Below, piece by piece: positions 6,001 to 53,515 of a stretch of DNA of 64,000 bases (position 1 is its first letter; the number at the start of each line of letters is the position of its first letter). The position numbers and the translations under genes are program-made. Below the pieces are notes generated by a model. The model was not told the origin of the DNA, searched no databases, and was given only the letters and a program-made list of their open reading frames with translations. This DNA comes from Trichomonas tenax (lineage: Eukaryota > Parabasalia > Trichomonadida > Trichomonadidae): positions 81,407-145,406 of the forward strand of contig JALKBU010000011.1 of assembly GCA_023091735.1 (NCBI GenBank), read 5' to 3'.

Positions 6001-8867
6001 CCGAATGTTACATTGCACAGTTGCTGAACTGCGGAAATAAATTCGTTGAAGTTAACAAATCCTTCCATATTGAAAAAGAAGAAGAATATATTACGATGAT
6101 GATTCACTTCTTGACTATTTCTGAGCCATTGACTTCAGATATTGTTGATTTCAATTTGAATCTTTTATCAAAGCAAACAGTCGTTTCATCAGCTACTGAT
6201 CAATATACATATGCAGCAAGATCTGTATATAACTATTATACCAGTACAAATCAGTTAGAAAAATTGATTGATCAAATGCTGAAACTATTCGAAGAAATGG
6301 TACACTCACAAAATTGGCATTATGTATTGGATGGTCATCCAGATGTTTTATTCTTGAAAGGTGAGCATGGTCCAGTTACAATTCCACCAAATTTCAACAA
6401 TATCAATAATTGGATCGGAATTGTAACCACAGGTGAAGCTAGAATCAATAGAGATACTATCAGAGATGGAGACTATACTATGATATCAGATGAAACGATC
6501 GCAGTTTCTTGGATTTCGAATGTTTCGACACTTTTGCTTATCCCATTCAATGACACAAAAACATTTTTGGGAACTTTCATCGAATTAGCTGTTTTGTTCA
6601 AGTATTTAGTATTGCTGCTCTCAGAGAATGTCAAAATTGCACAAAATATAAGAAAATCAGTTTATGCACTTGTTTTGGATTGTTTCATGTTCAAATCACC
6701 ATTCTTCTGCAGGAATGCATCCAGGGTTTTGAACTTCCTTCAGTTTCGCATCAGATCTATATGCTCTGATATCTGCGATGACTTCCTTGCAAAGCTCAAT
6801 ATTTTCGCATCATACTACAATTACTCGGCTAAATCACTTCCCGATTGCATGGGAAAGTTCATCGACGATCATCAATCATTATGGGATGAAAGAGTTCTTA
6901 TTCCATTACGTGCCGCGTTTCCAGAGTTCTTAACAGAGTCAGATAAACTCTCAATGGCCAAGGAGCATATCATTCCAAGCTTCAAGCTTCCTTCTAATAT
7001 GCTCATCGGCAAACCAAACAAACTCGCCAGCCATGTTCGACGTCTTCTTCAACCACGCACTGATATGATTGCATATCCATTCCATATATTGATCACCAGC
7101 TGGGTTGAAGTCAACCGAATGTATCCACGTTACACCATTAAAACACTGAGCGATTCAACAATTCTATTGACTTTCATACATTTTGTACCAAAATCATTCA
7201 AGATCTTATTCCACAGTGAAAATAAGAACATCAAGGAGGTTATGATACTAAATGATAATGATCGGAATGTCGAGAGATACCCAGTTACAGAAGTTTTAAC
7301 ACATGGTAACAAATCCCTCATCTTAAAGGCAATAAACTGGGCATGGCATATGATTGATTTCACACTCGAAACAACGAAATATTCAGATACGGCCGATTCA
7401 TTTATTGAGAAGAATCGTGACCATTTTGTCACCGATATGATCAAATTTGCTCTTCATTTCGACAAGTACGTTGATAATCAAATTTTGAGTGTTCTCCCAG
7501 CAGTAATATACCAGAAGTCCAGTATCAATTTGAATGATATTGTTCCATCGCTTTTCATGAAGACACGAATTTCTGAGGAAATAGCACTAATTATATTACG
7601 TGCACGTGTTTTGAACATTGTTAATTGGCTTGTTTTCAACCAAAAAATCGATTTAGCTCAGCAAGATTCCTCTGATTACTTAATCGATTTCGTATCCATT
7701 CCTCTTAAGATGATCAAATTCCGTAGATTGATTGATTCCAAGTCAAATGGAAAATATGCTAGTTTTTCTGTTGACAGGAAGCATTCATTTGAGCTCAGAG
7801 AGAATCTATCACAAAATTTCGAAACATCAATTATTGCTCAACTCACAAAGATTGGCATAACAGAGCTCAGATGCAAAGATCGTCCATGGCGTGTCAAATT
7901 CGTCGGCGAAGATGCAATTGATGCTGGTGGTCCAACAAATGAGTTATTTGGCGAAGCTGCAACTGATTTCTGTTGCCCACAATGTGGACTTGTTATACAG
8001 ACACCAAATGGAAGAAACGGAATCGGCCAGTATCGTGAAGCTGTCATTCCATTCCCGAATCCAAAGGTCAAGAACGCAAATAATAAGTATTTTACTGCAG
8101 GTGCTTTAATTGCTATGTGTGTAAGAACATCTCTGGTTCAAGACTTTAACTTACCACCACTCGTGTGGGAATACTTGACTCGAAAGAAATTTGATATCAA
8201 GCTTCTTTATGACATTGATCAGAACTTCAAGGTTCTTATGGATTCTCTCAGCGAAGCTGCGAAACAAACACTTGATCAATTCACATTCTCACGTCAATTC
8301 AATCTCAAATTTGTAATCAATAACATCGCTGGCCAGGAGTGTCCACTTGTTCCAAATGGTCGTAACATTCCTGTTACTGCAGATAATGTCCTTAAGTTTA
8401 TCGTTCATGCCAAAGAATTCCGTATCAATGAACTCACTGCCATTTTGGAGCATATGCGCAAAGGTCTTTGGAGCAACTTTAATTTCAATGCTCCATCATT
8501 TTTGGATTCATTTACACTTCAATACGCTTCTTGTGGTGAGAGTGAAATTTCCGCCCAAAAGTTCAAGACCATTATTAGTTTCTCCGGAGTCAGTGATACT
8601 TATCGCCGATGGCTGCTTAACTCGATTTCACGTTACAATTTAGAAGAAAGAATGGCATTGTTTAAGTTTATTACAGGAAGAAGCAGACTTCCTATTGATC
8701 ATAGTTCTTTCTCTATTACTGTTGACTCATATATGGGCAGAGATCTTATGCCATCTGCATCGACTTGTTTCAATCAGCTTCACCTTCCACAGTATTCATC
8801 AGAAGAAAAGCTTTATAGTATGGTTAAGGTTGCAGCTTTGTATGCAGGCACAATGGAAAACAACTAA
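3..8867 (+). CDS. Giant HECT-type E3 ubiquitin ligase, 5' end outside window
   Basis: The frame is open from the window edge and the first codon here (TTG) is not a start, so the N-terminus is missing; 2954 residues are visible. The last ~350 residues form a HECT domain, which takes ubiquitin from an E2 onto a cysteine and passes it to a substrate. Seen directly: the GEDAIDAGGPTNELF signature near the start of the domain and the C-lobe motif STCFNQLHLP with catalytic Cys at about visible residue 2922, 33 residues before the end, as usual for the family. A CPQCG pair lies inside the domain. The long N-terminal part is mostly alpha-helical; the stretch around residues 280-500 has repeated short strands (CDGNYLYIL, CSDGHYIYSI) like a beta-propeller or kelch-like module. 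The substrate cannot be told. The HECT call is secure; the subfamily is not. Confidence 0.95.
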   Translation: MEFSGQENDNIFSVSFDDAPLSLEFTSDLFNSEQAKQKQRINLPEDSIIGCIMSDPSFYTSLNSLEDVWMNILIPLFKGSVETGSYYQILLTEYFKFLYDRSKNTFKDEEVRRTLLNEVINGKRRNLNRLFTSQSSDCINIEEKNIQRIDSIKLISNLLHEYLKNETNIKIQQNQIHRLISKKICDILESKHEIPDLNDALAWSIFSGDITPMIVTLRILMTDYFGNTILTNFDLSFLEEQFKNFELLNAVPNICQGTIEGSKTITNPKISSTLTSSSVACDGNYLYILIKPTIIEQISLSKSISNEATRYASKEIQIPKNERFEMGIVHSNNRIIMLGQYVHDYKVLKTSPLDEEKKIKNIKIPQPYCSDGHYIYSIIGSKVHIHYFDGNNLELLRKVKLDDYGHCLNEEMSKKVVPPLNGTFLLSNGITLSIIKFNPNKQVLNKFTYIIRHFSLLDGSHIMDIETVLKAPLISMCVDPWNSCIWGITPSSKLKVNEIVKKTVTLIKFAYNGSHPTWLTGLKSDLVVQSKQASEIFHVKSPVSMSISIINFISYFVSHFVGSNMNVLIPATDDPSCAVARTFATGAKLTINETVKVIKILRNLYNEKKFAGQWTKKQYQTAISTLLYLLDFNISNLLINIPPPFNEEDEISTEVTSVLISLLSDNSFSLSQQIIYTISHCFEQIMRSNINNIDASMIQIFKSLNPLISVYFLSRFSETSVLPYCFSQSTCRKFFSPILKRMTSLNSEFHRNEFEITNCFMKSLMYELYEAYETNMGAIPQGKIILQENFQTFSGIITEEMLILINQLGSPALPQERLRFLPFNRIFLKWLLLLHPFVKFSRVSCIILSLMQPLYSSFNKKLTALNMVDPINQSKNSFTYVYSVFFDIYSLYVDLITSLVDGGSEIQDIQKYKWLIKSTIASDLTPEKVDALMANFGKPAQDVSPLLKKGFSFNSLPKVSQTDDKSDDFIVMLISQNDDPVITKLMDYIYSKVSDPSNKRLTPEKKQFERLIFASLIKHLGFASITKDLSLQLQKGEKPVINHAIRQAILQIYRVRRQLEVTRQQWQRLVDEAEQNKIPFKPKSINEDYPKFTKEMMKKCVFLLHVQPCERFMTDENDEVFTQMCKNISDFLTTSVSLSEYFQLIRTTQTVQKNIIAGIGLINAEFAEKDNDICAWYMIQRFSTSNSIVNFLKTLSTKSSQSQGFKTVIEMMDHIRNFTMTKSEHFQKNILLVFLANLLCSIASIDSEQIFDPLNVLINEIIGQKDEFSESQFSSLIAFIISTVIILIEANPNIKKSAQYPKLCAVLSKYKDIAYQRKPIGMLFEQINAFENQDPEDIIKDFAKTDPREYVSSSQFLLRLIQKSNKKITLLTTIFNEIALVASGQKSVFGAGFADPNTLLRMDSTKDIHIRTTKMQLGGCLIFISLIRQLLLKGDKEVIEMINAVLLTNHGVQYDKKYIAMNSQLMLYAAFAILSNVIDVFHFGSFIQNELSNSMYLVTDYDKKTMQLTVWQTPINGDTKQESLTPSNSTKVYQLFQFQTSMFPDYKNLIPYFKQSLKPNGRSFAEGLNYYIIACFKEYAQIPDFISQNIPDAFNNLSAKSFNVQSTRDSFLNILKIHLVNSEGGFACTKPSVMKFYPVSPFFCNSHMVEESDSHKLTCNCDFASYVTPPLTNGIVILKVKSIDVKNGEIGLLVPGYKIGVIKSIHFSINKGFITVNDGKNTYEVLNDQILIAFNSHKRSVTIQYDGSSTIVDMSNDSIPIFYCSIYEAGSIHYTLDNSTSFNKTDDQDMFNYSTLSYEPVSLCNKDAILPLSNKCVFSRKKPKLVNNNFKGLENIPNTIRIDSDYRPDLTHYYIQSARMQSSLVPTVDTQKKEMIVYDAKMLQLASTSSLCSTSSLFVGAVKLPRVEFSQNTSISSFAVQFGNIKHLLFNKYFQINPRTKEQRIVNEITGEVIEISSDIYSPSNSLPLINPNNYVIMPSVLANYFETALIDDFRSNIYTECYIAQLLNCGNKFVEVNKSFHIEKEEEYITMMIHFLTISEPLTSDIVDFNLNLLSKQTVVSSATDQYTYAARSVYNYYTSTNQLEKLIDQMLKLFEEMVHSQNWHYVLDGHPDVLFLKGEHGPVTIPPNFNNINNWIGIVTTGEARINRDTIRDGDYTMISDETIAVSWISNVSTLLLIPFNDTKTFLGTFIELAVLFKYLVLLLSENVKIAQNIRKSVYALVLDCFMFKSPFFCRNASRVLNFLQFRIRSICSDICDDFLAKLNIFASYYNYSAKSLPDCMGKFIDDHQSLWDERVLIPLRAAFPEFLTESDKLSMAKEHIIPSFKLPSNMLIGKPNKLASHVRRLLQPRTDMIAYPFHILITSWVEVNRMYPRYTIKTLSDSTILLTFIHFVPKSFKILFHSENKNIKEVMILNDNDRNVERYPVTEVLTHGNKSLILKAINWAWHMIDFTLETTKYSDTADSFIEKNRDHFVTDMIKFALHFDKYVDNQILSVLPAVIYQKSSINLNDIVPSLFMKTRISEEIALIILRARVLNIVNWLVFNQKIDLAQQDSSDYLIDFVSIPLKMIKFRRLIDSKSNGKYASFSVDRKHSFELRENLSQNFETSIIAQLTKIGITELRCKDRPWRVKFVGEDAIDAGGPTNELFGEAATDFCCPQCGLVIQTPNGRNGIGQYREAVIPFPNPKVKNANNKYFTAGALIAMCVRTSLVQDFNLPPLVWEYLTRKKFDIKLLYDIDQNFKVLMDSLSEAAKQTLDQFTFSRQFNLKFVINNIAGQECPLVPNGRNIPVTADNVLKFIVHAKEFRINELTAILEHMRKGLWSNFNFNAPSFLDSFTLQYASCGESEISAQKFKTIISFSGVSDTYRRWLLNSISRYNLEERMALFKFITGRSRLPIDHSSFSITVDSYMGRDLMPSASTCFNQLHLPQYSSEEKLYSMVKVAALYAGTMENN

Positions 8868-15955: not shown

Positions 15956-16380
15956 TTTTGACTTCAAACTTTGGCATTAGGCTCTATAGAAGTAGAACTA
16001 ATATATTTTCACTTGATATTTATTTCAATTATTTTTAATAAATGTGAATTTTGTGCTTTATTGGTTTATTATTTTGACTTCAAACTTTGTTATTTTGTTC
16101 TATAGAAGTTGTATTAATATATCCCCACTTTATTTTTGTTTGGAATTTTTTGAATATTTTTTATAAATATTGATTTTGAGTATTATTAGTTAATTTTTTG
16201 ACTCCAAACTTTGGAATTAGATTCTGCAGAAACCAAGTCAATATATCTACACATTATTTTTGTGAGAAATTTTTGACGTTTGATTTTGGTAAAGTTTGGA
16301 TTTTAGCACTATTTCTTTAATTTCTTGTTCTCAAACTTTAGTAATTGACTCTCCAGAAGTATGGCTACTAAATTTTCGAA
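15956..16380. repeat. Degenerate tandem repeat, ~116-127 bp unit, about four copies
   Basis: A block beginning TTTTGACTTCAAACTTTG is found at 15,956, 16,072, 16,196 (TTTTGACTCCAAACTTTG) and, more diverged, about 16,323 (CTCAAACTTTAGTAATT). After each block come, at similar distances, a CTATAGAAGT or CTGCAGAAAC-type segment and then TAATATAT(C/T)..CAC. Spacing is 116, 124 and about 127 bases. The array lies directly 5' of the minus-strand WD40-type gene, so it may overlap its upstream region. It has no coding capacity. Confidence 0.75.
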
Positions 16381-16661
16381 TTTTGTTCATGTAATTTTTT
16401 TTGCCTTTTGACTGACTCTACCTGAAAGGTTGTCTTTTTAATTTCCCAAAGTTTTGACTTTTTCCATGAAAATACCATTCTCTTAATGCTCTACGCTCTT
16501 TTTATTGTTGAAAGGATTGTTTTCTAAAATTTATTCCATGAAAAATAAGAAAGCAATACCAGATTGAATTAATATGTTGTTACAAAAAATTGAAATCGAT
16601 TTTTTCAAAAATGAATACACTTATATAATTACCACATCAGATTACTTGTATCTATTATATA

Positions 16662-40112: not shown

Positions 40113-41106
40113 ATGTTGTAATACATACTATTGTTAAATAAAAAAATCATAAGTTATTTCATTTCAATTTATGTTGGAAATATTTCACTGTGTTTAAATT
40201 CAAAAAAAAAAATTGTGTATTGATATCACAAAATGGAAGGAATTAGGAAAAAAAATATATTTTTGCTAATACCCTAAATTTTCAACCTTTGCACCACACA
40301 ATTTTTCGAGTCTGGGTTAAAATATACCCTCACTTTTTCACTGATGGCCTTTTTGTTAAGCTTGAGATAGCTTTTCTCTGTGCCATTGATCGGTACTCAT
40401 CTATGGCATGATATTCACGGAGGGCTAGAAGATTGTTGTGTTGTATATAAAAATGGAATATGAGGTAATTCGGTATTTTTATATTATATATATGAAGACG
40501 CTTCAACATGTCCCTATGATGATATCATAAGAGTATTAGTGAATAATAGTAAACTTCGAAGGAAATCAAATATGCGATTTGTCAATAAAATGGATATTGA
40601 GTGTGTTAAAATATTTTATACAGCTTGTATTTATGTGTATATAGTGTAATTATGCATAAATGAGAGATTTGATACGATATGAGAAATGAGATATTTAATT
40701 ACATTGAAAATACTGCTTTTTCGTTATTTTTATATCTTATAATGGATATATATGAAGATGTTATGATAATATAGCCTAGAATCGTATCAAAATAATTTGA
40801 CATTTTGTCATGTAAAATTAATTGTATCATTATGACATATGTAAAGCATGTTATTACGATGTAAATTGTTTTTTTTTTTTTTTTTTTTTTTGAGATATAA
40901 TTTTCGAAAGGGTGTAATAAAATTTATGAGGGAAAAGTTAAAAAAAAATTGACATTTCCATATATATAACAAAAGTGGCGTTTGCTGCGTATTAGGGTGA
41001 AAAAAAATACGACACCTACCGCTGAATATGATATTATTTGTTCAGCAGAAGCCCTCTTTGTGCTTGATCGAACACATTGCGACCTCGAGCCCGAATCTGG
41101 GCTCAA
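40113..41106. other. Gene-free region with CATG motif and T23 tract
   Basis: Mostly AT-rich. At 40,803-40,817 lies an exact TTTTGTCATGTAAAA, followed by ATGACATATGTAAAG (about 40,832) and a run of 23 T (40,869-40,891). From about 40,975 the composition becomes less AT-rich, with a GAGCCCGAATCTGGGCTC stem just before the repeated element at 41,107. Short opposing frames here (40,924-41,106 and 40,982-41,170) show no family features. Confidence 0.45.
40803..40817 (+). promoter_or_regulatory. TTTTGTCATGTAAAA motif
   Basis: Exact copy of the 15-mer found in reverse upstream of the coiled-coil gene at 29.3 kb. It is not close to a start codon here (about 1 kb upstream of the LRR-IQ gene). Confidence 0.4.
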
Positions 41107-41294
41107 CTACTTACAGCTAGTCATCTGTGATGACTCTCCGTCGGTATTCTGCCTTTGTTTGTCCGAATAAACATTTTGAAATTTTGTTATTATTCAATAT
41201 TTTCAAAACTGCTCATTTGTGAGCGGTTTCCTCCGGACATGAAAGCTTCTGGAGGAAGCTACTCACAAATTGAGCAGTTTTGAAAATATTGAAT
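41107..41294 (+). repeat. Repeated element, copy A, ending in a long hairpin
   Basis: Begins with CTACTTACAGCTAGTCATCT, then a variable stretch, CGAATAAACAT (about 41,164), AAATTTTGTTATTATT, and a hairpin. The left arm 41,192-41,234 and right arm 41,251-41,294 are inverted repeats (for example TTTTCAAAACTGCTCA against TGAGCAGTTTTGAAAA) with a 16-base loop. The same ordered parts occur, reversed, at 51,848-52,160. Homology stops at the outer foot of the hairpin in both copies, so this is one end of the element. There is no coding capacity. Confidence 0.8.
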
Positions 41295-41331
41295 AATTTC
41301 AAATTGCAGTTACGTAATTTTGTAGGATAAG

Positions 41332-41382
41332 TTAGAACATGATATTCTGGCATCGAGTAGATGTCATTAGGCCATGTTCTAA
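41332..41382. repeat. Inverted repeat next to copy A
   Basis: TTAGAACATG (41,332-41,341) and CATGTTCTAA (41,373-41,382) are exact inverted repeats with a 31-base loop. It may be part of a second hairpin structure beside copy A. Confidence 0.6.
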
Positions 41383-41867
41383 GTACAAATCGAAATCATT
41401 TGAAATGTGATAGGAAATGCCTGTTTTCTGGCTCACAATATGCTTCTAGTCATGCAGGAGGATCCAAATTTGCATCCCTAAAAAAGTTAAAACTTCCAAT
41501 ATTAATAAAATGCAAAATTAAAATAAATTCATAGAAAATTTTAAGGATGCTAACGATACGCAAAATCCCAATGCGGGTAAAAAGGCTTGTACGCATGCGA
41601 CATTCTTTTAGTGGATTTCTTCTTTTCGAACACTTACACTTTTTAATTACAATTTAAAGTGCTTAGGAAGTGGGCACCTTATGTCAAAAAAGTTGCGGTG
41701 TTGTCTGATATCACGCATGCGACATGCCGAAAAAGCGGTTATGTGTGCAAGCGAAAAAGACCTGTGTCCACTGTGTTATCATTTGTGTTGCACATAGCAT
41801 ATAATGTCTAAATATAATAAAATTATTGATTTTTACTATAAATCACAAAAAACGTTTTTCAAATTCA
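41383..41867. other. Upstream region of LRR-IQ gene with 13-bp direct repeat
   Basis: ACGCATGCGACAT occurs at 41,591-41,603 and 41,713-41,725, 122 bases apart, each around a CGCATGCG palindrome. The last 100 bases are AT-rich. TCAAATTCA directly precedes the start codon at 41,868. Confidence 0.5.
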
Positions 41868-44800
41868 ATGGGTGAGGGAGACCTCACTCCAGTCCGCGTT
41901 TACGAGTGTAATGACATTCCTATCGACTCGATTCCGCTCGAAAACGTGAAATACTTGGGAGTGTCGGTGATGAACTTGACGAATATCTCTTTGGTAACAA
42001 AATTAAAATCTTTGCAACTCGTTACTTTCAGATTGTGCGCATTAACACAGTTTCCGGAGGAACTGTGGCAACTTCCGCAACTCAGATCTATCGATATCTC
42101 AGGTAACGCCATTTCGCAATTGCCTCAATCACCGAAATGGAAGGAAATGGTTGAATTGTCGAGTTTTAATATCTCTGAAAACAACATTAACGAACTTAGC
42201 GAGTTCAGGAATATCATAGAAATACCAAATCTTAAGCAATTAAATTTTACAGGAAATGTATGTCAAGGAGCTAACGATGCACAGAACAGAATGGTAAAAA
42301 TATTTCCGAAAATCATTGTTGTTAACGAAACTATCATATTAAGTCAGCATCGAGGTTATCTCGATGAAGTCGCAATATTTGATAATACATCTACACTACC
42401 ACTATCAAAGACAGACGATTTCTTCTTTAATTATGTCAAATACATGCACGCAACAGGAATGGAAAGATATTTGCGAAGACTTAATGCTGAAAATTTCTGT
42501 TTGAACAAAGTTTTACGTAAATACAGTTCCGCTGAAAAGATTCAGAGCAATTTTAGAGGCTTTGTTCAAAGAAAAATTTACAAAAAAATGCGAGAATGCG
42601 CAATTGTCATTCAATACCACATTCACAAGTGGTACAAGAAGCGTCTTCAATCGGCGAACGTTATTAAGCGTGCCTTCTTGCATTTCATGACGAAACAAAA
42701 AATCAAATTAATTCGCGCTGCAAGAGTCATTCAATCTCGCTGGCGTGCAAAACAAGTAGCTGAGCTCGCGCTGATTGAGCTTTTCTCTTCAAATGACAGA
42801 ATTGAGTTCTTCGTGACTCCAAATGATGCAAAATTCCTCGAAGATTACTGCAGACAAAAACAATTCGCGAATCCTTCTTTCATTCACACAAGCGAATACA
42901 AACTTCTCAGGCAATCAGAGCCAACGAAATTGATATTGCCTGGAAGTCCGATTGTATATTATTCGCTCGATAACAGTTTTGCTATCAGACATATGAATCC
43001 AAAACGAGCTCTTTCACCAGATAAAACAATTTGGTGCAATCACGATCACAATTACATGAAGATGAAAATGATGGTCAATCAGCGCGGTTTCAACTACACG
43101 AATTTATGTCCATTCGCAACATTGCCTCCATCGAAGTACAGAAAGCCAATAAAGAAAATTCAAATTAATGATAAAAGTCAATATCTCATTCTCTGTTACT
43201 TCGAGAGATTGTCAGATTTCATGCAGATCTTCCATTCACTTCAAATCGGTGATGTCAAAGGCGTTCGCTTGATTCCTATCAGAAACGTTCCAATGATTGC
43301 TTCGACAGTTTGCATTCAGTCAGCAATGAGATCTTTCATCACGAGATTGCACAATTTCCATCAAATAAGACAAGAAGTTCTCCACAAACGCGCTTTACAG
43401 ACAATTCGTTGTTTCGTTGGCTTAATGAGAATGAAGAAAATCATGGATGGTGTCAAGAGAACGCAATACTTCAGAGAGAAGATTACGAAACTCAGTTATT
43501 TCTATGTTCGCGATACATTCTTGAGAGAATTGTTTTACATGAAACCAATCATTCCTCTTCACTTCGGATATTCATCGGATCGTGAAATCATTCTCAAGGA
43601 AGGAAATTCTCCGATTTTGAACGCTTTCCTTCCACAAGACAACGGTGATGTCAAAGCAGAAGACTTAAGCACAGTTTTGAAGTTCGGCGCAAGTGTTTCT
43701 CAAGCCAGAACAACGTATTTCGCTGACCCACAAATGATCAATGACAAATTCCTTAGCAGATATGGATTCCACAGAGTTTCGTTTGCTACTGCTGAAGAAG
43801 CTGCTCACAGAGCGATTTTGCTCAGCTGGGTCGCCACAAAGAAAGACTGGTGTTACTTCGAAGAAGACATTGTTGACTTCTGTGCTGCAACGAAGATCAA
43901 GAATGCATGGATCGGTCACACAACGAGAAGAATGATATTCCATCTTGCTGCTCAACAAGGAAAGAAGATCAACATTCAGGCTTTCATTTACAGACCGGTT
44001 GATTATCGACTCAAAATGCAATTGATGCAGGATGATCAAAACAAGAGAAAGAAACCTGTTACACCAGACATCAATGTTGAAGAACAGATCGACATTCTCA
44101 GAGGTGTTTATCAGCCTTGGAAATATGTTTTCGATCAATACAAAAAAGATTATGGCACTGAATTAGTCGGACTTCCTGAAAAACCAAAGCGTCCAACAAA
44201 AGAACTCACGCATTCAATGAGACAGATGGGAACGATCAATGATCTTCTTCCTCCTGAACCAGAGCCAGAACCTGAAGTCGTTGAACAAACTCAAAAACCA
44301 ACAATATTGAACACAACACCAAGAACATCGAATTTCATTTCTCCTGAAGTTTCCAGATTTGTTATTACTCCTGTAAGGTCAGTGAACTCTCCATTATTCG
44401 AAACAAGGCCAAAGACAGGATCAATCAAGCCATCGACTCTCAAGAGAATTGTTGGATTCGACAGTTCTCAGTCTTTGACAGCAAACAGCTTTGGCGGAGC
44501 TCCTGTTGAGAAATTGATCGAAAAATCAACATCATCACTTGCCATCGAAAGAGCTCCTTCTCCACCACATCAAATTCGTCCTTCTTCATCGATTGTTTTT
44601 GAAACTAATTATCAAGAACGCGCACGGACATCAATGCAGAATGGAAGAAAATCTGCAATTTCAAATCAAACGTCTCAAATCATTGCAAAGCCAATCCTGA
44701 AAATTCCAATCACTCAAATGCAACAAACAAATACAACCACAGTGAGTAATCTTCCAAGCGCTTATAAGATCAAATCAATATCAACTCAATCAAGTTTGGC

Positions 44801-45662
44801 ACCTCTTCGTGATGTCAAATCAGCTCAAAGATCAGATTACACAGCAAGAGAACACACAGCAGAAGTTTTCGGTCGTTTATCACAACTTCTTAAAGTCACA
44901 GATGCTGTTCATCAAGCAGCAATTCATGATACAACACTTGAAGAAAAGAGAGCAAATACTACAGCTGCGAGAAACACAATCGTTCAAGCTTACGCAAACA
45001 CACATAAAATGCTTGAACAAAACGCAAGCGACAGTCATTCAAGAGCTAAAATTGAACGCGAAGAGAGACTTTTGGAAGCAGAGAAAGTCAAAACGAAAGC
45101 AATGGAACAAAAAGTTTCAGCTGCAAGACAGGTCAGAAGAGATCACGCGATGCATCGCGAGAATGTTATAGTTGGAACAATCTTTGCACAAAACTTCGTT
45201 TCAACAACACATCAATTGGCATCACGAGTTGAAGGACGTATTCTCAAAGCTAATAAACGCAAAGAACGTGAACTTGTTCAGACACAAATGGCAGCAGTAA
45301 GAGAACAAGAGAAACTTGATAAGAAGGAATACAAGGAATTCGTTAAAGAGATGAAAGAATCCAAACTCGAAATGGCCAAATTGGACAGAGATTTATATCT
45401 TGAGGAGAAGAAACTCCGCGAAAAAGGTCTCGAAGACAAGAAAGCTCGTCTTGCAACAGCGAAAAGCACAATGAAGCAATCGACAATGACAAGATCGCTC
45501 AATGCAACACAGAAACCATATATTCCACCAGACAAAATTGAAACAGCTGTTTTCGACGATGTCGAGTTAATGGCTGCAGAAGCTTCAAAACTTATAGGAG
45601 CAAATGTTGGAGCTCACGAATCACATCTATTATCAGAACTTATGAGTTCCGCTATGAATTAA
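41868..45662 (+). CDS. Leucine-rich repeat and IQ-motif protein (LRRIQ-like)
   Basis: 1264 residues from the ATG at 41,868 (MGEGDLTPVRVYE); the frame extends upstream only through non-ATG spacer. Residues ~20-160 hold LRRs (LQLVTFRLCALTQFPEELWQ, LRSIDISGNAISQLP). Residues ~210-305 and again ~480-540 hold IQ motifs, which bind calmodulin or EF-hand light chains (SAEKIQSNFRGFVQRKIYKK, RAARVIQSRWRAKQ, VCIQSAMRSFITRL). The middle is globular without a known signature; ~840-1000 is Ser/Pro-rich and disordered. Residues ~1040-1200 are a long charged coiled coil (LEAEKVKTKAMEQKVSAARQ). LRR+IQ proteins are commonly ciliary or centrosomal and trichomonads are multiflagellate, so a flagellar or cytoskeletal role is a reasonable inference. 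It converges with the SANT gene, 92 bases apart. Confidence 0.88.
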   Translation: MGEGDLTPVRVYECNDIPIDSIPLENVKYLGVSVMNLTNISLVTKLKSLQLVTFRLCALTQFPEELWQLPQLRSIDISGNAISQLPQSPKWKEMVELSSFNISENNINELSEFRNIIEIPNLKQLNFTGNVCQGANDAQNRMVKIFPKIIVVNETIILSQHRGYLDEVAIFDNTSTLPLSKTDDFFFNYVKYMHATGMERYLRRLNAENFCLNKVLRKYSSAEKIQSNFRGFVQRKIYKKMRECAIVIQYHIHKWYKKRLQSANVIKRAFLHFMTKQKIKLIRAARVIQSRWRAKQVAELALIELFSSNDRIEFFVTPNDAKFLEDYCRQKQFANPSFIHTSEYKLLRQSEPTKLILPGSPIVYYSLDNSFAIRHMNPKRALSPDKTIWCNHDHNYMKMKMMVNQRGFNYTNLCPFATLPPSKYRKPIKKIQINDKSQYLILCYFERLSDFMQIFHSLQIGDVKGVRLIPIRNVPMIASTVCIQSAMRSFITRLHNFHQIRQEVLHKRALQTIRCFVGLMRMKKIMDGVKRTQYFREKITKLSYFYVRDTFLRELFYMKPIIPLHFGYSSDREIILKEGNSPILNAFLPQDNGDVKAEDLSTVLKFGASVSQARTTYFADPQMINDKFLSRYGFHRVSFATAEEAAHRAILLSWVATKKDWCYFEEDIVDFCAATKIKNAWIGHTTRRMIFHLAAQQGKKINIQAFIYRPVDYRLKMQLMQDDQNKRKKPVTPDINVEEQIDILRGVYQPWKYVFDQYKKDYGTELVGLPEKPKRPTKELTHSMRQMGTINDLLPPEPEPEPEVVEQTQKPTILNTTPRTSNFISPEVSRFVITPVRSVNSPLFETRPKTGSIKPSTLKRIVGFDSSQSLTANSFGGAPVEKLIEKSTSSLAIERAPSPPHQIRPSSSIVFETNYQERARTSMQNGRKSAISNQTSQIIAKPILKIPITQMQQTNTTTVSNLPSAYKIKSISTQSSLAPLRDVKSAQRSDYTAREHTAEVFGRLSQLLKVTDAVHQAAIHDTTLEEKRANTTAARNTIVQAYANTHKMLEQNASDSHSRAKIEREERLLEAEKVKTKAMEQKVSAARQVRRDHAMHRENVIVGTIFAQNFVSTTHQLASRVEGRILKANKRKERELVQTQMAAVREQEKLDKKEYKEFVKEMKESKLEMAKLDRDLYLEEKKLREKGLEDKKARLATAKSTMKQSTMTRSLNATQKPYIPPDKIETAVFDDVELMAAEASKLIGANVGAHESHLLSELMSSAMN

Positions 45663-45754: not shown

Positions 45755-48454
45755 TTAATCCTTCTCAGTAAGTTGATTATATCGCTCTGTTATCTCAGCA
45801 ACAGACCTTCCTGGAAGGGAATCCGCAATGACTTGAAGAGGAATTTTATCATTCATCTTGGTCATAATAATCATATCTTCTTGATCCGTCCACTTGTTCT
45901 GATCTTCGCTTGGCTTCGATTGGAGGTTAAAGGCGAGTTTTAGAGTTTCAATTCTCCTATAAACATCAATCTTTGCCTTATCCGGGAACAATTTAACAAT
46001 TTTAGATCCAAGTGTCTTCTTTTTGAGTTCATCAACGATTAATTGATCTTCAGCTGATGTCCACTCATTCTTTGTATTATTTGGATCGTGCTGAATATCA
46101 TCCAACTCATTGTGCTCTTCAGCTTCGCTGTCGTGAACTGATCCTTCATCAAACTCACCACGAAGGAAGTGATCGTAATAAGTTTTGACGTGGACTGCTT
46201 TCTTTGGCGGGAAGAGGGCAGCGATACTATCCCACGAAAGTCCTTCTCTCTTCTTGCAGAGAATTAAGTTTTCTTCGCGTTTGGAAAAGGAAACATTCTT
46301 AAGTTTTGGTTTATCAGATTTGTCGGCCATGTATTTCAGTTTCACATTCCATCTCGACACTAAAGCATTCTGTGTTCTTCCACTGAGTGTCTGAAGAATG
46401 TCTTGCCAACTCTTTCCTACTGTTCTCATTTTGATAATTCTCTTATCTTCATCTGGCGTCCATGGACGTTGTGATGTTGACGGAAGATTCAAGTTCTTTA
46501 TCTTCTTCTTTAATGTGCATTGGCAATGAGTTCTAATTGATGTATCTTTTCTATCAGGAAACATTGCAAAGATTTCACGCCAACTCGCTTTTCTTTCCAA
46601 TGCCGCAATGAGTTTCCTGTCTTCTTCTTCTGTCCATGAATTGTAAGTTCTTTTATAGTCTTTATCATTTGCCGTTCCATCATTATATTCTTCATCGCTG
46701 CGCTTGTTATCATTAGAAAATGTTGCATTTCCGTTTCCATTGTTTCTTAAGAAGTACCAATGCATTCTGCAAGCAGCAGGAGTTCTGTTTGTAAAGTAAG
46801 TGTTGATTTTCTCCCAATTGGTGCGATGCTCTCGATAAAGCTGCATTAATAATTCATCTTCTTTCGCTGACCACTGTCTCTTGATCAAACCAGCAATGGA
46901 TTGATCTGTTAATGCATTTTCTTCCATTTCTTCTTCATAATCGTGCTCATTATCAGGTTTGTCATTTTCTGACACTGCCCACTGAGAAGTGGCAATTTTT
47001 TGAAGTTTTGTGTACCATCTTGTTGAAATTGTGCTTGGTGTTTTGTTTGGAAGCGCATCAGCTATTTCATCGAATGTTGCACCTTTCATTTTCATTTCAA
47101 TAACGGTATTTTCTTCCTCTGGAGTCCATAATGCAATTCGTGATTTTTCATTATCTGTATCATTAATTTGTTCTGTTTGCTGTTGAATCTCTTCAGCAGG
47201 TGCTGTTATAGCAGGTATAACAGGTGCTGGCGGTTGTGGAGGTATTTTAGCTTTCTTTCTTGAACTTCTGGGTGTTCTATATCCAAATGTATTTATATCG
47301 TTTAGATTTTCATTAGGAATCTTGTTTTCCATGATAAGTTGTGGATATAAACTATTTGTCCAATAGTTGTATAAAACGTTCACTGGATAATGAGGTAATG
47401 CACATGATATTGATTCCCAATCATCATGAAATACTTTCCATGCATCAAACAAAACTTCTTTATCTTTTGGATCAAATTGGACATCGAAAGATTCAGAATT
47501 TGAAAAACTGCTGCTTTGTGATTTAGAAATTGTCACAGGATTCTGCGGTAAAGGTGTCTTAAGTCCTGCCTTTGGTTTAATTGTCATTAAATGTTTAGAA
47601 TGAATCGTGTAATGTTGTTGAATTGCTGAAACTGTTCTTCCGGGAATAAACTCAGCAATAGCGTTCCAGTTCGGTCCCAATTCGGTGTATTTAGACATCA
47701 GCATCTCCTCTTCTTCAAATGACCATCTTTTAGCGCGAAGATTATTTTGTTTTGTTGGTTCATCATTTTGCTTATCATCTTGTATAATGATCTCATTTTT
47801 CTTGTCACAAATCGAATCTAAGAGCAAAAATACGTCCTTATTGTAGAATTTATTCTTCTCTCGTTTCATTTCGAAATTTATTTCTTGAATCTTGCGAATT
47901 AGTTCAGGATCATCGACAAGCGGTGGTGGTGGAGTCGTGTTTGGTGTGTTTTCTTGATATAAGACTGAAAATAATGATTTTGATGAGATATTTTCTCCTT
48001 TAAGCTGAGAAATAACTTTTTCTGTATTATAGTCGTTCATTCTAAGCATTTGTTTCGCAATAAAGTGTGAAAAACCCATATTTTCTATAAATTTAACATT
48101 ATTGACGAAATCTTCAGGATCATTCCTATATTTTCTGGTAGATTTTGTCGTACTTTGGCCAGATCTAGAAGTTGGTCTGCTTATTGGATGAAATTTTGAA
48201 AGTATTGATATATTATTAGTTTGATTTTTTTGTTCTTCAACTTTTTTCACAGTTACAAACTTGTTGGGAGGTATCTGTAGGTTATATATATTGGCGGTAT
48301 CACTCATTTCCGTTTCTTCGTAAAATAATTTGATTATATTTATCGAACATTTTAAATAATTCGATAAAAGCGCTTTGACACCATTCGCCGTCGCTAATTT
48401 ATCGATTTGGAGAAGAATACTATCGCTCTCTGTGATTAGAAAGCGAATCTCCAT
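45755..48454 (-). CDS. Ubiquitin-like + UBA + nine SANT/Myb-repeat protein
   Basis: Intact 899-residue protein. Residues 1-72 follow the ubiquitin fold pattern (MEIRFLITESD start, KALLSNYL helix, IKLFYEETEM turn, FVTVKKV end). Residues ~117-153 are UBA-like (VKFIENMGFSHFIAKQML). Then come nine SANT/Myb repeats: about 243-286, 327-368, 442-486, 527-570, 606-648, 663-707, 722-764, 797-840 and 854-896, most starting W(S/T)xxE(E/D) (RPWTPDEDKRIIKM, NKWTDQEDMIIMTK) and ending in a third helix such as TVSAIQQHY. Myb repeats bind DNA or histone tails; UBL-UBA pairs bind proteasome and ubiquitin. A nuclear protein linking chromatin to ubiquitin is inferred. The second repeat lacks the first tryptophan. 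An Inr (TCATTTTT) lies 15 bases upstream of the ATG. Confidence 0.87.
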   Translation of the reverse strand: MEIRFLITESDSILLQIDKLATANGVKALLSNYLKCSINIIKLFYEETEMSDTANIYNLQIPPNKFVTVKKVEEQKNQTNNISILSKFHPISRPTSRSGQSTTKSTRKYRNDPEDFVNNVKFIENMGFSHFIAKQMLRMNDYNTEKVISQLKGENISSKSLFSVLYQENTPNTTPPPPLVDDPELIRKIQEINFEMKREKNKFYNKDVFLLLDSICDKKNEIIIQDDKQNDEPTKQNNLRAKRWSFEEEEMLMSKYTELGPNWNAIAEFIPGRTVSAIQQHYTIHSKHLMTIKPKAGLKTPLPQNPVTISKSQSSSFSNSESFDVQFDPKDKEVLFDAWKVFHDDWESISCALPHYPVNVLYNYWTNSLYPQLIMENKIPNENLNDINTFGYRTPRSSRKKAKIPPQPPAPVIPAITAPAEEIQQQTEQINDTDNEKSRIALWTPEEENTVIEMKMKGATFDEIADALPNKTPSTISTRWYTKLQKIATSQWAVSENDKPDNEHDYEEEMEENALTDQSIAGLIKRQWSAKEDELLMQLYREHRTNWEKINTYFTNRTPAACRMHWYFLRNNGNGNATFSNDNKRSDEEYNDGTANDKDYKRTYNSWTEEEDRKLIAALERKASWREIFAMFPDRKDTSIRTHCQCTLKKKIKNLNLPSTSQRPWTPDEDKRIIKMRTVGKSWQDILQTLSGRTQNALVSRWNVKLKYMADKSDKPKLKNVSFSKREENLILCKKREGLSWDSIAALFPPKKAVHVKTYYDHFLRGEFDEGSVHDSEAEEHNELDDIQHDPNNTKNEWTSAEDQLIVDELKKKTLGSKIVKLFPDKAKIDVYRRIETLKLAFNLQSKPSEDQNKWTDQEDMIIMTKMNDKIPLQVIADSLPGRSVAEITERYNQLTEKD

Positions 48455-48471: not shown

Positions 48472-49660
48472 TTTTTATCGTTCTTTTGTTAAAAAATTAA
48501 TTTTCAAAAATTTGATATATTTTGATTCGGATCTTAAAGAGGATTGTTTTAAATCGACTGTCAAAAAATTTGATATTTTTCAATTTTCTGCTATTTTCGT
48601 TTTTTATCTTTCGCATTATCATATATGGGTGCTGGTTATCGCATTTTTCTCAACATTTGTTGTTTTTTAATTTTCATGAAAATTAAATTGATTTCAAATT
48701 TACAACTTTCGATCATAATTTCTATGAGCAGAACCATGTTTTAAAGAGAACCTTCAAAACATGTTCATTTTAAAATACTTATTTCATATTTTTGGAATTT
48801 GTTTTTTGAGCATTCCTGTATTCATTTAGCTAATTATTGAAATTCTACGATCAAACCTGATAACGATTAATGGGGAAAATATTTTTCATGAAAATGATTT
48901 GCTAATCATGGGAACTTCAAAATATTGAGTTATAATTCCATTTATTACATATTGTTAACTTTTAAGAAATATTGACTTGCAATTGTTTACTGTTGATTTT
49001 TTTTGACATACGATAAATCCAATTGAAAGTAAATAACCTTATTTTATAACTTATAGAGTTTAAAAATTTAATGTATTTCAATATACACAATGGATGCAGA
49101 TCTTTAATTCAAGTTTATTTTGTATCCAACTTTAAAAATTGTAAAAATAAAGGCTGTGACGCTCTTAACCTTATTTTAAAAAATTCTTCTCGGGCTAATA
49201 AAATGCTTCTTATCATTGAATACTATTATATTAATATTTTAACACAATGATATAGTCAATAACAACATAGAGCTAAATATTATTATACATTTAGTTAGGT
49301 GTGGATCTCATTTTTGTTGAAAATATATTCAAATGAGGAGAAGACAAACTATACCGAAAATTTTTGGTATTGTTTGTAGTTTTGGGGAAGGAAGAGGTTT
49401 AGAGGAATTTATAAACAGCCATTATGACCTTATGAAGCCCGCTCAAATACGCTTCTCATTATCCATAGATTTTCACGCCTGTTAGACACATGTGTCTAGA
49501 CACACATATATATCTTTATATATCATGATGTCAGAAATATTATGATTACGTGTCAAATTGATGACCTTCAAAATGAGATATAAAATGTGGATAAGCCAAT
49601 CACACAATATTCATATTTGCATGTAAAATAATGCACGCTCATTGATATTTTTATTGTTGA
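48472..49660. other. AT-rich gene-free region with nested palindromes
   Basis: About 1.2 kb with no convincing ORF. At 49,483-49,498 TAGACACATGTGTCTA is a perfect 16-base palindrome, overlapped by the 14-base palindrome TGTGTCTAGACACA (49,491-49,504) and followed by a TA-rich stretch. Nothing else stands out. Confidence 0.5.
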
Positions 49661-49739
49661 ATACCGCCTGGACCAAAAATTTCCAAAATTCCAAATAAAT
49701 TCTCGACCCATCAAAAACAGCCTGGCACGAACATCGCCA

Positions 49740-50099
49740 TTAAATTCGGGGTGTGGGCGGACGCCTTTCCCAATGATATTCCCACATCGAGAAAAACTTC
49801 AAATAGGTTATCTCACTTTTCGCTCTAGGTGGATTTGGATAAAATCGAATCGCATACAAAACATGATGCTTGTTGCTGTTATCGAGTTTGCTAAGCCCGA
49901 TATCTGTGAGAGGTGGATATTTTGTATTATTATTGTCTATCCAATCTGCAAATTGCCGAAAATAAACCTCTCCCATTTTTTTATCCCTTAAAAGGGCAAA
50001 AATGAATGTGTCTTTGTAAAGCAAGTTTTTGTGAGTGTCGGACACAATGAACAGACATATTGAATTTTTGAACTGTGTCGGAAGTTTACACAGACACAC
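49740..50099 (-). pseudogene. Coding-like fragment of unknown protein
   Basis: A minus-strand frame of 119 codons with no ATG at its start (GTG); the first internal ATG is in DKKMGEVYFRQFADW. The composition is more balanced than in random AT-rich frames (IGLSKLDNSNKHHVLYAIRF, WEYHWERRPPTPRI). The region (49,660-50,100) is also less AT-rich than its flanks. I cannot assign it to a family; it may be a relic of a mobile element or of a gene whose 5' part is lost. Confidence 0.3.
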
Positions 50100-51847
50100 A
50101 CAATTTTTTCGAATGTTGTTTTCTTCAATAATACGATTTTGTATCTATTATAAATCATTTATGCCGTATTAAAATCGAAATTCATTGATTTTTTTAGTGC
50201 AAAATTACAAAAGACACATAAAAAATTAAATTTTCAAAACGAGACATTGTTCAAGACAATGGGGATGACAGGTCAGACACTTAACGTATAGATTTTAAGA
50301 AGCGTACGCTCAAATGATGTTTGAGTAGAATAGGTCAAACTGAGGAAGTACTACCCTAAGTTTGATTGAATTCTTCATCAGTGGAGTTCAGGCCTTCTGA
50401 TTTTTTTTGATGTAAGCTTTAGCGAGGTGCCACGGAAAAACCACCTCCTATTACTTCTTGAGCCTTTAAGGACTGCAACTACACCATATATACTTCCATT
50501 CTATCCTAAAGCTGCGCCTCTAAACTTGACTTCGAAAATAGATTTTTTCGATAATTTGGTGAACTCATACGACAATGCAAAATCTTGCCGTTAAGAACCT
50601 ACACATGTAGGGGTAAGGATTCATCTGAGCTTATGTTGTCAAAAAAGTTTGTTTTTTTAATAAATTTCTCAATAATTGCATCTCAGATCTCGACAACATC
50701 GCGCATTTGTGCCGAAATTCGGTCATAATCATAGGGTTTAACCCATACAAACACTAACTAGCCTTAAATCTTCGCTTAATTCCGTCAAAATGTCAAAAAC
50801 TAACTAATTAAATCTCGATTATCTTTTTCAATTTCTAATCTTTCGGACCTTTTCTACTGCCGATGTTCATGGTATACCTAAGGGTTTCAACCATGAAAGA
50901 TTCAAAAAAAATCCATTTATTTTTCAAGATAATATCTTGATATTTTTTTTCATTTCTAAATATTTTTCTCAATAAACATTTGGAAACCTTCTTTTCTGAT
51001 GCATACTTCATTGTTCATCTGTTTAATTGCTATAAAACATACTTTTACTAAAAATGTTATTTTTTTGTTCGAATGAACTAATTAGGCTCATTTTTACCAA
51101 TTATCTCAAAAGTTCCATGCAAATGATTTACTGTACATTTAAACGAAGTTGAAGCAATTTTTCGCACTAAATATCATGTTTGAAATAAAAATTTATTTTT
51201 GATGGAAAAGCTTGGAGTATATTGCAGTACGTGTATATGTAATTATAATGCTACGGTTTTTCTATACAAATTCACATATTTTAACAGATAAAAAAAATTT
51301 CAAAACGAAAATTGCTTAAAAAAAGTTTTTATTTTTCTGAAAGATCAAAGAAGAGTGCCATCTCCGGCTTAAACATCATGAATGAAAGCAGAATGGCGAA
51401 AAATCAAATAACTCTCGCAATATAAAACTAAGATGCATGAAAAATTAAGCAAAAAAACAGCATAGAGGATATATAAAAAAAAACAAAAAATTGCTCAAAA
51501 AAGGGCAAAACTTGGAGATGATTTAGTGATAAAGTATTGGCACCTGAAAATGACCCAAGGAAGATATTTGTCAATCTGAAGCACGAATTGATGCTCCATA
51601 TCCTTTAAACAGGCGAATAATTGTTGACAAATATCCCAAATTTTGGAATTTGGGAAAAAGGAGCGAGTTTAAGGGTGGCACAAGGTCAAGGGTGTATTAA
51701 AGTCTAAAATCCTGCTTCAAAAATTCAAGTTCTGGAGACGGCAGTGGCGATTTGGCTGCAAGCAAAAAATTGTTCATGGAAAAGTGATGTCTATCGTCAT
51801 GACTCCCCCTTCTTTCCTATCGTTGGTGAAAGTATGGCAAATCTGGG
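50100..51847. other. Gene-poor region with short structured words
   Basis: About 1.7 kb without a supported gene. It contains a GAGGTG..CACCTC stem near 50,425-50,448, a CCGAAATTCGG palindrome near 50,717 and a CCCAAATTTTGGAATTTGGG stem near 51,637. The composition alternates between very AT-rich and moderately GC-rich patches, as expected for old transposon debris. No element family was recognised. Confidence 0.35.
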
Positions 51848-52160
51848 TATTATGTATTTCCAAGAATGCTCAATTTCTGGTTGGTTTCCTCAATACAAGC
51901 GATGCTCTGTAGAAAATCAACCAGAAATTGAGCAATTCTGGAAATATTTAATAATAGCAAAATTTTAATATGTTTATTCGTAAAATAAAAGTAGAAACAT
52001 TACGACTGGTCGTAGCAGCTGACCATCTGTAAGTAATAAGGATAAAAAACCAGTTCATATTGAAATGAGTTCGATCGAAGATAAAAATTGCTTCAGCTTG
52101 TATTCTGAATGCAGAAACGCAACAAATATTTATCGCAGATGACTAGCTGTAAGTAATAAA
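51848..52160 (-). repeat. Repeated element, copy B, ending in a long hairpin
   Basis: Read on the minus strand it has the same parts as copy A at 41.1 kb: TTACTTACAGCTAGTCATCT (52,160 inward), a second copy of that word (52,014-52,039, plus strand reading GACCATCTGTAAGTAATAAG), CGAATAAACAT (about 51,970-51,980), AAATTTTGCTATTATT, then a hairpin. The arms are 51,912-51,956 and 51,848-51,891 (CAGAAATTGAGCAATTCTGG against CCAAGAATGCTCAATTTCTG), with a loop of 20 bases. Compared with copy A the arms differ at many positions but stay paired. Confidence 0.8.
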
Positions 52161-53515
52161 GCCAATTGGCTTTGAAAACGTTTTAATATTATAAATCGGC
52201 ATCATTTAAGCGCTTCAAGATGCTAAAAATGGGATAGCATTCAATTCCGAGTGAGAAGGACGCTGAATGATGCATTACAATTGAAGGATCATGCTCTCAT
52301 GCAAAATGACACTTTCTGTTACAAGGGGTTTACCCCCAATTAAAGGGGGTCTAGACACCATTGTCGCCGAGAGTCCTATTTTGATGGAAAACGACATGCT
52401 TAATTTAAGGTTATTATAAGTTTTTCCAAGAAAGTTTAGTTTCCACAGCGCGCAAAACTTCAAATTTTCTAGCAAAGTTCGAGAGGCTCATTATAGGGGC
52501 CCTATAGATGAGATGTAACTACTAACAAAGCAAAAATAAATCATCCTACGTGAATATGCAAATTTCTCAATTAAAAACGTCGATTTGTTGCTTTTAATAG
52601 ATGAAAATACTTATTGCAGCTACTTTAATATTGTTTTATACAACTTTTACTACTTAACTAGCTTTATTTGACTAAATATTTAAACTTTCACATAAATACA
52701 AAATTTCTTAAACAATGCAAGTACTATATTAGAATTTGCATCTTAATAACAGAAATAAATAGAATTTTGGTAAATACATATTAAAATAGCGAAATCGAAA
52801 TCGTATTTTGATCAATTTTAGGAGTTTATGAGTAATTATAGGAATAAAATGTCTGCATATAGCCTGTATGCTTTGTGGGAGTTAACAAATTACGTCTTAT
52901 CACACTAATTGCGAAGATATTATTTTTATTTCGAAAAAGAAAGGACATATGTTATAATGAATGCAACAACCAACATCTAGGCCATGAATGCAGCAATACC
53001 TCTATTCTCGTTTACGGTAAGAGGCCTTAGTTAGAGTGGACCTGCTTCTAAATTTATACTGATAATTCCACCTCATATTTCTTCCGATTTCAGCCTATGT
53101 ATGCTAATCACAGTTATGTTTGAATATCCAACCACACATTGTTTGTAGTTTTGTTCAAATTTCTCTCATTATTTTTTTAAAAAAAAAACAATTCACGCCA
53201 CTACTGTTTTAAATGTAACATTTTTAATCATATACGGCCACTTAAAAATGCCATTGATCTTGCAATGATTGGTTTTCTCATTAACTCTGCTTCATTAATA
53301 TACTTGAATATTCAGATCTTTTCAAAATGTTATTTAGCACGTCATACATTGTTAATGATCTCAAAATTGTGCGTGAGAGTTTAGGCTTTCGTTATGACAT
53401 CTTGAATACCACCAAACTGAAACAGTTTTTCAACAAAAAGTGAAAACTATGCTATATATAATATAAATGTGAAAGATAAAATGAAAAATATTTTTTTACA
53501 AAAAAAAAAAATAAA
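52161..53515. other. Gene-free region upstream of DENN gene
   Basis: About 1.35 kb, mostly AT-rich. A GC patch at about 52,325-52,350 holds GGGGTTTACCCCC and GGGGGTCTAGAC. The last 50 bases before the DENN start are A-rich, with no strict Inr. Confidence 0.4.

What the first reader, a model, noticed from the sequence alone, without database searches (positions are those of the whole stretch)
41107..41294. Two-copy element with a ~105-nt hairpin kept by compensatory changes (copy A here, copy B at 51,848-52,160)
Two sites 10 kb apart share ordered parts: a (C/T)TTACTTACAG word, CGAATAAACAT, AAATTTTGYTATTATT and a long hairpin, in opposite orientation. The hairpin arms differ between copies, but both arms change together: copy A pairs TTTGTGAG with CTCACAAA, while copy B at the same place pairs TTTCTGGTTG with CAACCAGAAA. 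Homology ends at the outer foot of the hairpin. This suggests selection for the fold (structural RNA, or a transposon end such as a foldback or Helitron-like hairpin terminus) or copy conversion between arms.
Basis: partly seen in the sequence, partly recalled or inferred. Interest (0 to 1): 0.78.

Follow-up and report, generated by a model that had tools for sequence, protein, structure and literature searches.

The report
Transposon family with flipping hairpins
The two sites are copies of a scattered, non-coding mobile DNA element that carries a row of long hairpins; the paired arm changes are real between its two old branches, but the evidence points to the two DNA arms copying (and sometimes flipping) each other rather than to a conserved RNA.

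Summary
In detail: both sites carry the same words and a long hairpin, in opposite orientation, and the arms differ together. They belong to a repeat family with at least 56 places in a 53.4-Mb genome. Copy B is a non-coding DNA transposon with short inverted ends (TAAGCATGT...ACATGCTTA) and mostly 8-bp target duplications; a second, TA-flanked transposon cut it at the hairpin foot, so homology stops there. Copy A shares the hairpin core but has other ends. Between branches, paired changes exceed chance in hairpins hp1 and hp3, not hp4. Within branches, arm mutations are rarely matched (7 of 238 events), and G.U is no commoner than A.C (54 v 69). Six of 12 matched changes are transversions, and hp1 and hp3 are flipped in some copies. 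This favours DNA arm-to-arm copying in source lineages over selection for an RNA fold; selection on active source copies is not excluded. Superfamily is unproven; no transposase was seen inside a copy.

The parts
40309..41463 (+). Copy A element: outer part 40309-40818 followed by core 40806-41463, truncated on the right inside hp3
   Evidence: Long genome matches to 40113-41050 start at query 188-236 (window 40300-40348), most at 195-218; core matches end at 41463; order compared with L010, L014 and L015
40309..40343 (+). End of the A-type element (GAGTCTGGGTTAAAATA...CTCACTTTTTCAC), an imperfect terminal inverted repeat
   Evidence: Same end on both sides of L010 (3880 and 6061) and on one side of L009 and L014, aligned by eye
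41181..41306 (+). hp1 of copy A (long hairpin; fits L010 better when reversed)
   Evidence: DNA fold z -14.4; reversed alignment to L010 115/127 versus forward 109/131
41332..41382 (+). hp2 of copy A, a weak imperfect inverted repeat
   Evidence: Inverted repeat 41332-41354 / 41360-41382, 74% complementary
41402..41463 (+). Left arm and tip of hp3; right arm and hp4 are missing in copy A
   Evidence: Sequence read; alignment to other copies stops at 41463
51848..52402 (-). Copy B element, left part (B-type); right part absent from the window
   Evidence: 87% identical to L018 element positions 1-555 and no match to the rest at this place; common left edge in 15 of 16 loci printed (L032 departs)
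52394..52402 (-). Left terminal inverted repeat TAAGCATGT of copy B
   Evidence: 47 left-end matches genome-wide with up to 3 mismatches, 0 for the reversed control
51848..51961 (-). hp1 of copy B
   Evidence: DNA fold z -9.7; alignment A1
50404..51847 (-). Nested TA-flanked transposon (end CCCAGATTTGCCATACTTTTACCAA...), its right end lost in this copy
   Evidence: 8 of 17 right ends examined resume the host element directly after ...GGGTA; 9 stand in other flanks

Best explanation
A family of non-coding, non-autonomous DNA transposons in a trichomonad-like genome carries a core of about 740 bp with a row of inverted repeats (hp1, hp3 and hp4 about 100-130 nt each, plus a weak hp2). Copies are spread by a transposase supplied from elsewhere (inferred). 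The hairpin arms change together between old branches because the two DNA arms serve as templates for each other (replication template switching at the hairpin, or recombination/gene conversion between the inverted arms), which copies a mutation from one arm into the other and now and then flips the hairpin in place. Once dispersed, individual copies decay with unmatched mutations. Shown here: the family, ends, target duplications, nested insert, paired changes between branches in hp1 and hp3, their near-absence within branches, and hairpins lying in both orientations. Inferred: the copying mechanism itself and which step (replication or recombination) does it.
For: At least 56 places. Target duplications: 8-bp flank identity 72% v 28% in swapped controls, 5 of 15 exact. 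Deep pair changes, L010 v B-type majority: hp1 7 of 52 shared pairs changed on both sides, all Watson-Crick to Watson-Crick, overlap p = 2.3e-4; hp3 3 of 45, p = 0.009. On 41 distinct hp1 rows doubly changed cells (31 v 9.0) and covariation score exceed all 500 shuffles and all slid controls; pairs with a double change are less striking (9 v 6.2, reached by 33 of 500). Of the 12 matched double changes 6 are transversion-type, close to the mix of one-sided changes (123 transition-type: 105 other), unlike compensation through G.U. Within branches 228 of 238 distinct events hit one side only; G.U 54 v A.C 69, p = 0.21. Reversed hairpins: by best BLAST strand window A and C1087 among 42 hp1 and C810 and C294 among 25 hp3, none of 33 hp2 or 29 hp4; scored again. 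The ~1-kb core is also inverted in window A and C857 relative to C1140 and C1033, between 34-column inverted repeats (29 matching). Where an Rfam microRNA model hits hp1 on both strands its scores are similar (for example 65.6 and 61.7 bits), as for a DNA palindrome.
Against: hp4 shows no excess of paired changes (3 doubles, one of them unmatched, expected 2.5; p = 0.48). At pairs already mismatched in the branch reference, distinct changes restore pairing 25 of 55 times, so no strong ongoing arm correction is seen. In 11 of the 23 hp3 copies counted the left arm has drifted without correction, and the reference of that group has 5 G.U but no A.C mismatch, which taken alone leans to RNA. The flips may be only two events, each seen in two copies; a tip-only test flagged C1087 but not window A, and for hp3 the gain of the reversed alignment is small (92/101 v 92/103; 88/101 v 87/103). 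No event was caught between near-identical alleles.
Confidence: 0.58

Rival explanations
1. The hairpins are selected as RNA (or as a transposase/host-factor binding structure) in the few active source elements; dispersed copies are dead and free to decay, so matched changes appear only between source lineages.
For: Matched changes between branches and unmatched changes within them are also what selection on source copies gives. hp1, hp3 and hp4 are near-perfect in C1140. One hp3 group has 5 G.U and no A.C mismatch in its reference. T. vaginalis is reported to have small RNAs over repeats (PMC7845603, passages seen).
Against: No overall G.U preference, neither in one-sided events (54 v 69, p = 0.21) nor clearly in branch references (summing: G.U 26, A.C 20, not independent); 6 of 12 matched double changes are transversions; hp4 has none beyond chance; reversed hairpins point to arm exchange; no clear strand preference in Rfam scores.
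Confidence: 0.24
2. Foldback or Helitron-like terminus: the hairpin is the end of the mobile element.
For: Homology between the two window copies stops at the hairpin foot.
Against: The stop is caused by a nested TA-flanked insertion in copy B; 8 of 17 right ends of that insert resume the host element; the host element has short inverted ends and target duplications about 0.44 kb and 1.0 kb away from hp1 in L018.
Confidence: 0.03
3. The core with its hairpins is itself an older mobile module that entered two unrelated transposons (A-type ends GAGTCT..., B-type ends TAAGCATGT).
For: Core positions 305-1041 of the B-type align with A-type at 73%, outer parts do not; C1059 holds a B-type derivative with no core.
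Against: Core edges were not tested for a target duplication of their own, so nothing shows that the core moved by itself; one type could have acquired new ends instead. This account does not by itself explain the paired arm changes.
Confidence: 0.15

Closest known systems
Non-autonomous hAT or P elements of Trichomonas vaginalis (hAT.3N1, P.1N1 in the table of PMC7845603, passage seen)
   Same: DNA transposons without their own transposase, tens to about 160 copies; 8-bp target duplication in both superfamilies (recalled)
Template-switch hairpins (Monttinen and Loytynoja 2022, PMC8794818; abstract, opening and Discussion seen)
   Same: Matched multi-base changes in both arms explained by copying one arm from the other; complete inversions of the loop seen, described there as very rare
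   Different: That study used RNA genes; here the hairpins lie in dispersed, apparently non-coding mobile DNA with stems of about 45-58 pairs
Mutator-like elements (A-type ends only)
   Same: Possible 10-bp target duplication in one copy (8 of 10 matching, read by eye), imperfect inverted ends of about 30-35 bp; MULE transposase domains exist in this genome (11 hits)
   Different: One copy only; no transposase tied to an A-type copy; ends not compared with known MULEs

Membership tests
Cut-and-paste DNA transposon, non-autonomous (MITE-like) | Terminal inverted repeats | tested here: met
   TAAGCATGT / ACATGCTTA on both sides; 47 left and 42 right ends genome-wide
Cut-and-paste DNA transposon, non-autonomous (MITE-like) | Target-site duplication of fixed length | tested here: met
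   Peak at 8 bp (72% v 28% control; 5 of 15 exact at 8, 1 at 7, 2 at 9; 9 of 15 with at least 6 of 8); L027 dropped for lack of a left end
hAT superfamily | 8-bp target duplication | tested here: met
   P elements also make 8 bp (recalled), so not decisive
hAT superfamily | hAT transposase in an autonomous relative with the same ends | tested here: inconclusive
   Three PF05699 hits; in the 3-9 kb held around each, none is bracketed by these ends
hAT superfamily | TIR beginning YARNG (recalled) | tested here: not met
   TAAGC in the copies
P superfamily | P-type transposase with the same ends | not tested
   No search made
Helitron | No target duplication, hairpin at the 3' end with CTRR (recalled) | tested here: not met
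   Target duplications present, hairpins internal
Structured non-coding RNA | Departures from Watson-Crick that favour G.U over A.C | tested here: not met
   54 v 69 events, p = 0.21; one hp3 group leans the other way in its reference (5 G.U, 0 A.C)
Structured non-coding RNA | Match to a curated RNA family at its threshold | tested here: not met
   Inside the elements of L018 and L010 only sub-threshold hits, nearly all microRNA models
Structured non-coding RNA | Transcript or small RNA | not testable with these tools
   No expression data
Template-switch / arm-conversion hairpin | Matched multi-base arm changes and in-place inversion | tested here: met
   hp1 and hp3; not hp4
Template-switch / arm-conversion hairpin | Matched change located on a single branch as one event | not tested
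   No ancestral reconstruction was made

The most novel reading that the evidence does not exclude
A mobile-element family whose row of long hairpins is kept complementary by DNA arm-to-arm copying without RNA selection, leaving inversions at several scales (single hairpins and a ~1-kb core): a natural multi-copy record of template switching that mimics RNA covariation.
Probability: 0.4. Interest if true: 0.58.

Novelty: new variant of a known kind. Interest (0 to 1): 0.42.

Why it matters
Covarying base pairs are widely taken as strong evidence of a functional RNA fold. A dispersed, apparently non-coding family in which such covariation arises at the DNA level, with reversed hairpins as a second trace, would be a good test case for template switching as a source of misleading covariation and a warning for RNA-family searches in protist genomes.

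Tried and rejected
Coding element: the neighbouring ORFs at 41826-45662 (IQ motif, weak LRR) and 45755-48454 (Myb repeats) are not transposon genes by Pfam. The first idea that the two window sites were the two ends of one 11-kb element was dropped: each is a copy with its own relatives elsewhere.

Autonomous partner: PF05699 (3 hits) and PF10551 (11 hits) were searched; C1059 and C1450 looked linked but their domains lie outside the copies. C1450's stretch L110 holds only the first 45 bases of the element. P-type and other transposases were not searched.

RNA.fold-based pair maps favour G.U by construction, so the G.U/A.C test was redone on arm alignments. The first mismatch count is not used; its strand comparison is. 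hp2 was left out of pair counts because it is not a clear hairpin. Rows dropped: L105 from all hairpins and L012 from hp3; on realignment, L096, L105 and L012 from A2 and L106 from A3; in the branch comparison the B side was a majority of 13, 8 and 12 copies and the A side the single copy L010. L010 was also the A reference, so reversed copies add some spurious tip events there.

Literature: three searches on Trichomonas and transposons and two on hairpin or palindrome copying. Their listings (up to 15 titles each) show no paper that names this family; beyond listings I saw only PMC8794818 (abstract, opening, Discussion) and PMC7845603 (passages).

Full report
What the window is. The window lies on contig C333 of a 53.4-Mb, 1528-contig genome. 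Its genes (ankyrin, BspA-type leucine-rich repeats, Myb repeats, RRM, DENN, kinase) and an M18 aminopeptidase 63% identical to a T. vaginalis protein and 31% to one of Histomonas (the best of the 5 hits, 68%, has no name) point to a trichomonad that is probably not T. vaginalis; the species is not identified.

Check of the observation. Folded as single-stranded DNA both hairpins beat all 200 shuffles (z -14.4 and -9.7). The two sites are homologous and in opposite orientation.

A repeat family. BLAST of copy A matched 29 contigs and of copy B 40 scored places of 59 candidates; together these are at least 56 places, counting A and B of C333 apart and 13 shared contigs once (lower bounds; some matches are short). 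Copies of the B type start at one edge, TAAGCATG, in 15 of the 16 loci printed. A full copy (L018 4441-6010, 1570 bp) ends ACATGCTTA. The left end matches 47 times in the genome and the right end 42 times with up to 3 mismatches, the reversed control never. Matching those ends by hand gave 22 left-right pairs of 0.85-3.5 kb, 13 of them between 1.4 and 1.7 kb. Flank comparison of 15 copies (16 tried; L027 lacked a left end) shows a duplication peaking at 8 bp: 72% identity against 28% when flanks of different copies are swapped, 5 of 15 exact at 8, 1 exact at 7, 2 exact at 9, 9 of 15 with at least 6 of 8. This is what a cut-and-paste DNA transposon leaves. The length fits hAT or P elements (recalled); the end sequence does not fit the recalled hAT pattern, and no transposase was seen inside a copy. 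hAT dimerisation domains (3) and MULE domains (11) occur elsewhere in the genome.

Why homology stops at the hairpin foot. In copy B a second transposon starts exactly there: TA at 51849-51848, then CCCAGATTTGCCATAC. Its ~1.5-kb copies carry the same end inverted on the other side. Of 17 right ends examined, 8 run straight back into the host element (ATATCAAATTATATTTATGG...), 9 into other flanks. So the stop is a nested insertion, not an element end. In the window copy the insert's right end and the host element's right part are missing.

Copy A. Copy A belongs to a second type. In L010 (C1140) that element runs from 3880 to 6061 with imperfect inverted ends of about 30-35 bp beginning GAGTCT and a possible 10-bp duplication with 8 of 10 matching, both read by eye. 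Window A starts with the same end at 40309. Types A and B share the core (B positions 305-1041, 73% identical). In window A and C857 the core is inverted relative to the outer part, compared with C1140 and C1033; inverted repeats of 34 columns (29 matching) flank the core in L010. Window A breaks off inside hp3 at 41463.

The hairpins. The core holds hp1 (~127 nt), a weak hp2, hp3 (~103 nt) and hp4 (~130 nt); in L010 hp1, hp3 and hp4 have DNA-fold z of -18.5, -10.2 and -13.6.

Do the arms change together? Between branches (L010 against the majority of 13, 8 and 12 B-type copies) hp1 has 7 of 52 shared pairs changed on both sides, all Watson-Crick in both, with 7 single changes; hp3 3 of 45, all Watson-Crick, with 5 single; hp4 2 matched and 1 unmatched double of 47, with 16 single. 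The overlap of left and right changes has p = 2.3e-4, 0.009 and 0.48. On all 41 distinct hp1 rows, doubly changed cells are 31 against 9.0 in shuffles (0 of 500 as high) and the covariation score exceeds all shuffles and slid versions; the number of pairs with a double change is less striking (9 v 6.2, 33 of 500). Such tallies count inherited changes many times.

Within branches the picture is the opposite. Over nine hairpin-by-branch groups (93 hairpin copies; L105 and, in hp3, L012 left out) there are 238 distinct events at pairs that are Watson-Crick in the branch reference: 228 on one side, 7 matched doubles, 3 unmatched doubles. One-sided changes give G.U 54 times and A.C 69 times (p = 0.21), so overall there is no sign that the strand tolerates G.U as a selected RNA would. 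One group departs: in 11 of 23 hp3 copies the left arm has drifted and the group reference has 5 G.U and no A.C mismatches. At pairs already mismatched in the reference, 25 of 55 distinct changes restore pairing; I made no exact chance estimate, but this is no strong excess. So dispersed copies appear to decay freely.

Arm exchange. By best BLAST strand, window A and C1087 (of 42 hp1) and C810 and C294 (of 25 hp3) lie reversed; none of 33 hp2 or 29 hp4 do. hp1 of window A and of C1087 aligns better to C1140 when reversed (115/127 and 120/127, against 109/131 and 113/133 forward); hp3 of C810 and C294 fits C521 better reversed by score (157 v 143 and 137 v 118), with nearly equal matching bases. 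A test on the tips alone flagged C1087 (1 of 42 hp1), C810 and C294 (2 of 22 hp3) and none of 28 hp4; window A was not flagged by the tip alone. At least two inversion events are needed. Of the 12 matched double changes, 6 are transversion-type, close to the mix of one-sided changes (123: 105), which is expected if any mutation can be copied from arm to arm and not if compensation runs through G.U.

Mechanism. The simplest account is that arms templated each other in the lineages of the source elements, by replication template switching or by recombination between inverted arms. Monttinen and Loytynoja (PMC8794818; abstract, opening and Discussion seen) describe this pair of traces, matched multi-base changes and very rare complete loop inversions, in RNA genes. 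Here the carrier is mobile, apparently non-coding DNA. Selection on the fold in active source copies gives a similar between/within contrast and is kept as the main rival; the transversions, the lack of an overall G.U preference, the absence of signal in hp4 and the reversed hairpins weigh against it.

Verdict. The family is a new variant of a known kind; its value is as a multi-copy example of covariation that DNA arm exchange can explain.

Noticed in passing
window 49448-50306: Another repeat of about 860 bp with 9 other places in the genome at 92-97% identity, 6 of them nearly full length (a capped list); nature not determined.
   Followed up: no
window 40250-40309: Just outside the copy A end, a stretch of about 40 bp matches 25 other places at 84-100% identity, mostly ending at the same base; not identified.
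   Followed up: no
window 41666-41711: A 46-bp stretch 80% identical, inverted, to the right end of the B-type element (E 1.3e-5), just upstream of the ORF at 41826.
   Followed up: partly
L055 6011-6488 (C1059): A B-type derivative with the left end on both sides, an inverted right part between and no hairpin core; a hAT-type domain lies about 2.3 kb away.
   Followed up: partly
L010 4549-5577; window about 40795-40850: The ~1-kb core of the A-type element occurs in both orientations relative to its ends, flanked in L010 by 34-column inverted repeats.
   Followed up: partly
window 15956-16407: Four diverged tandem copies of an 85-nt unit, spacing 116-127 nt.
   Followed up: no
L018 3016-3087: tRNA match above the Rfam threshold (49 bits, threshold 29) about 1.3 kb from an element copy.
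   Followed up: no
G000 C1305:87346 and C1528:73269: Two element copies share the same right flank (22 of 22 bases printed) but not the left, suggesting a duplication or recombination between copies.
   Followed up: no
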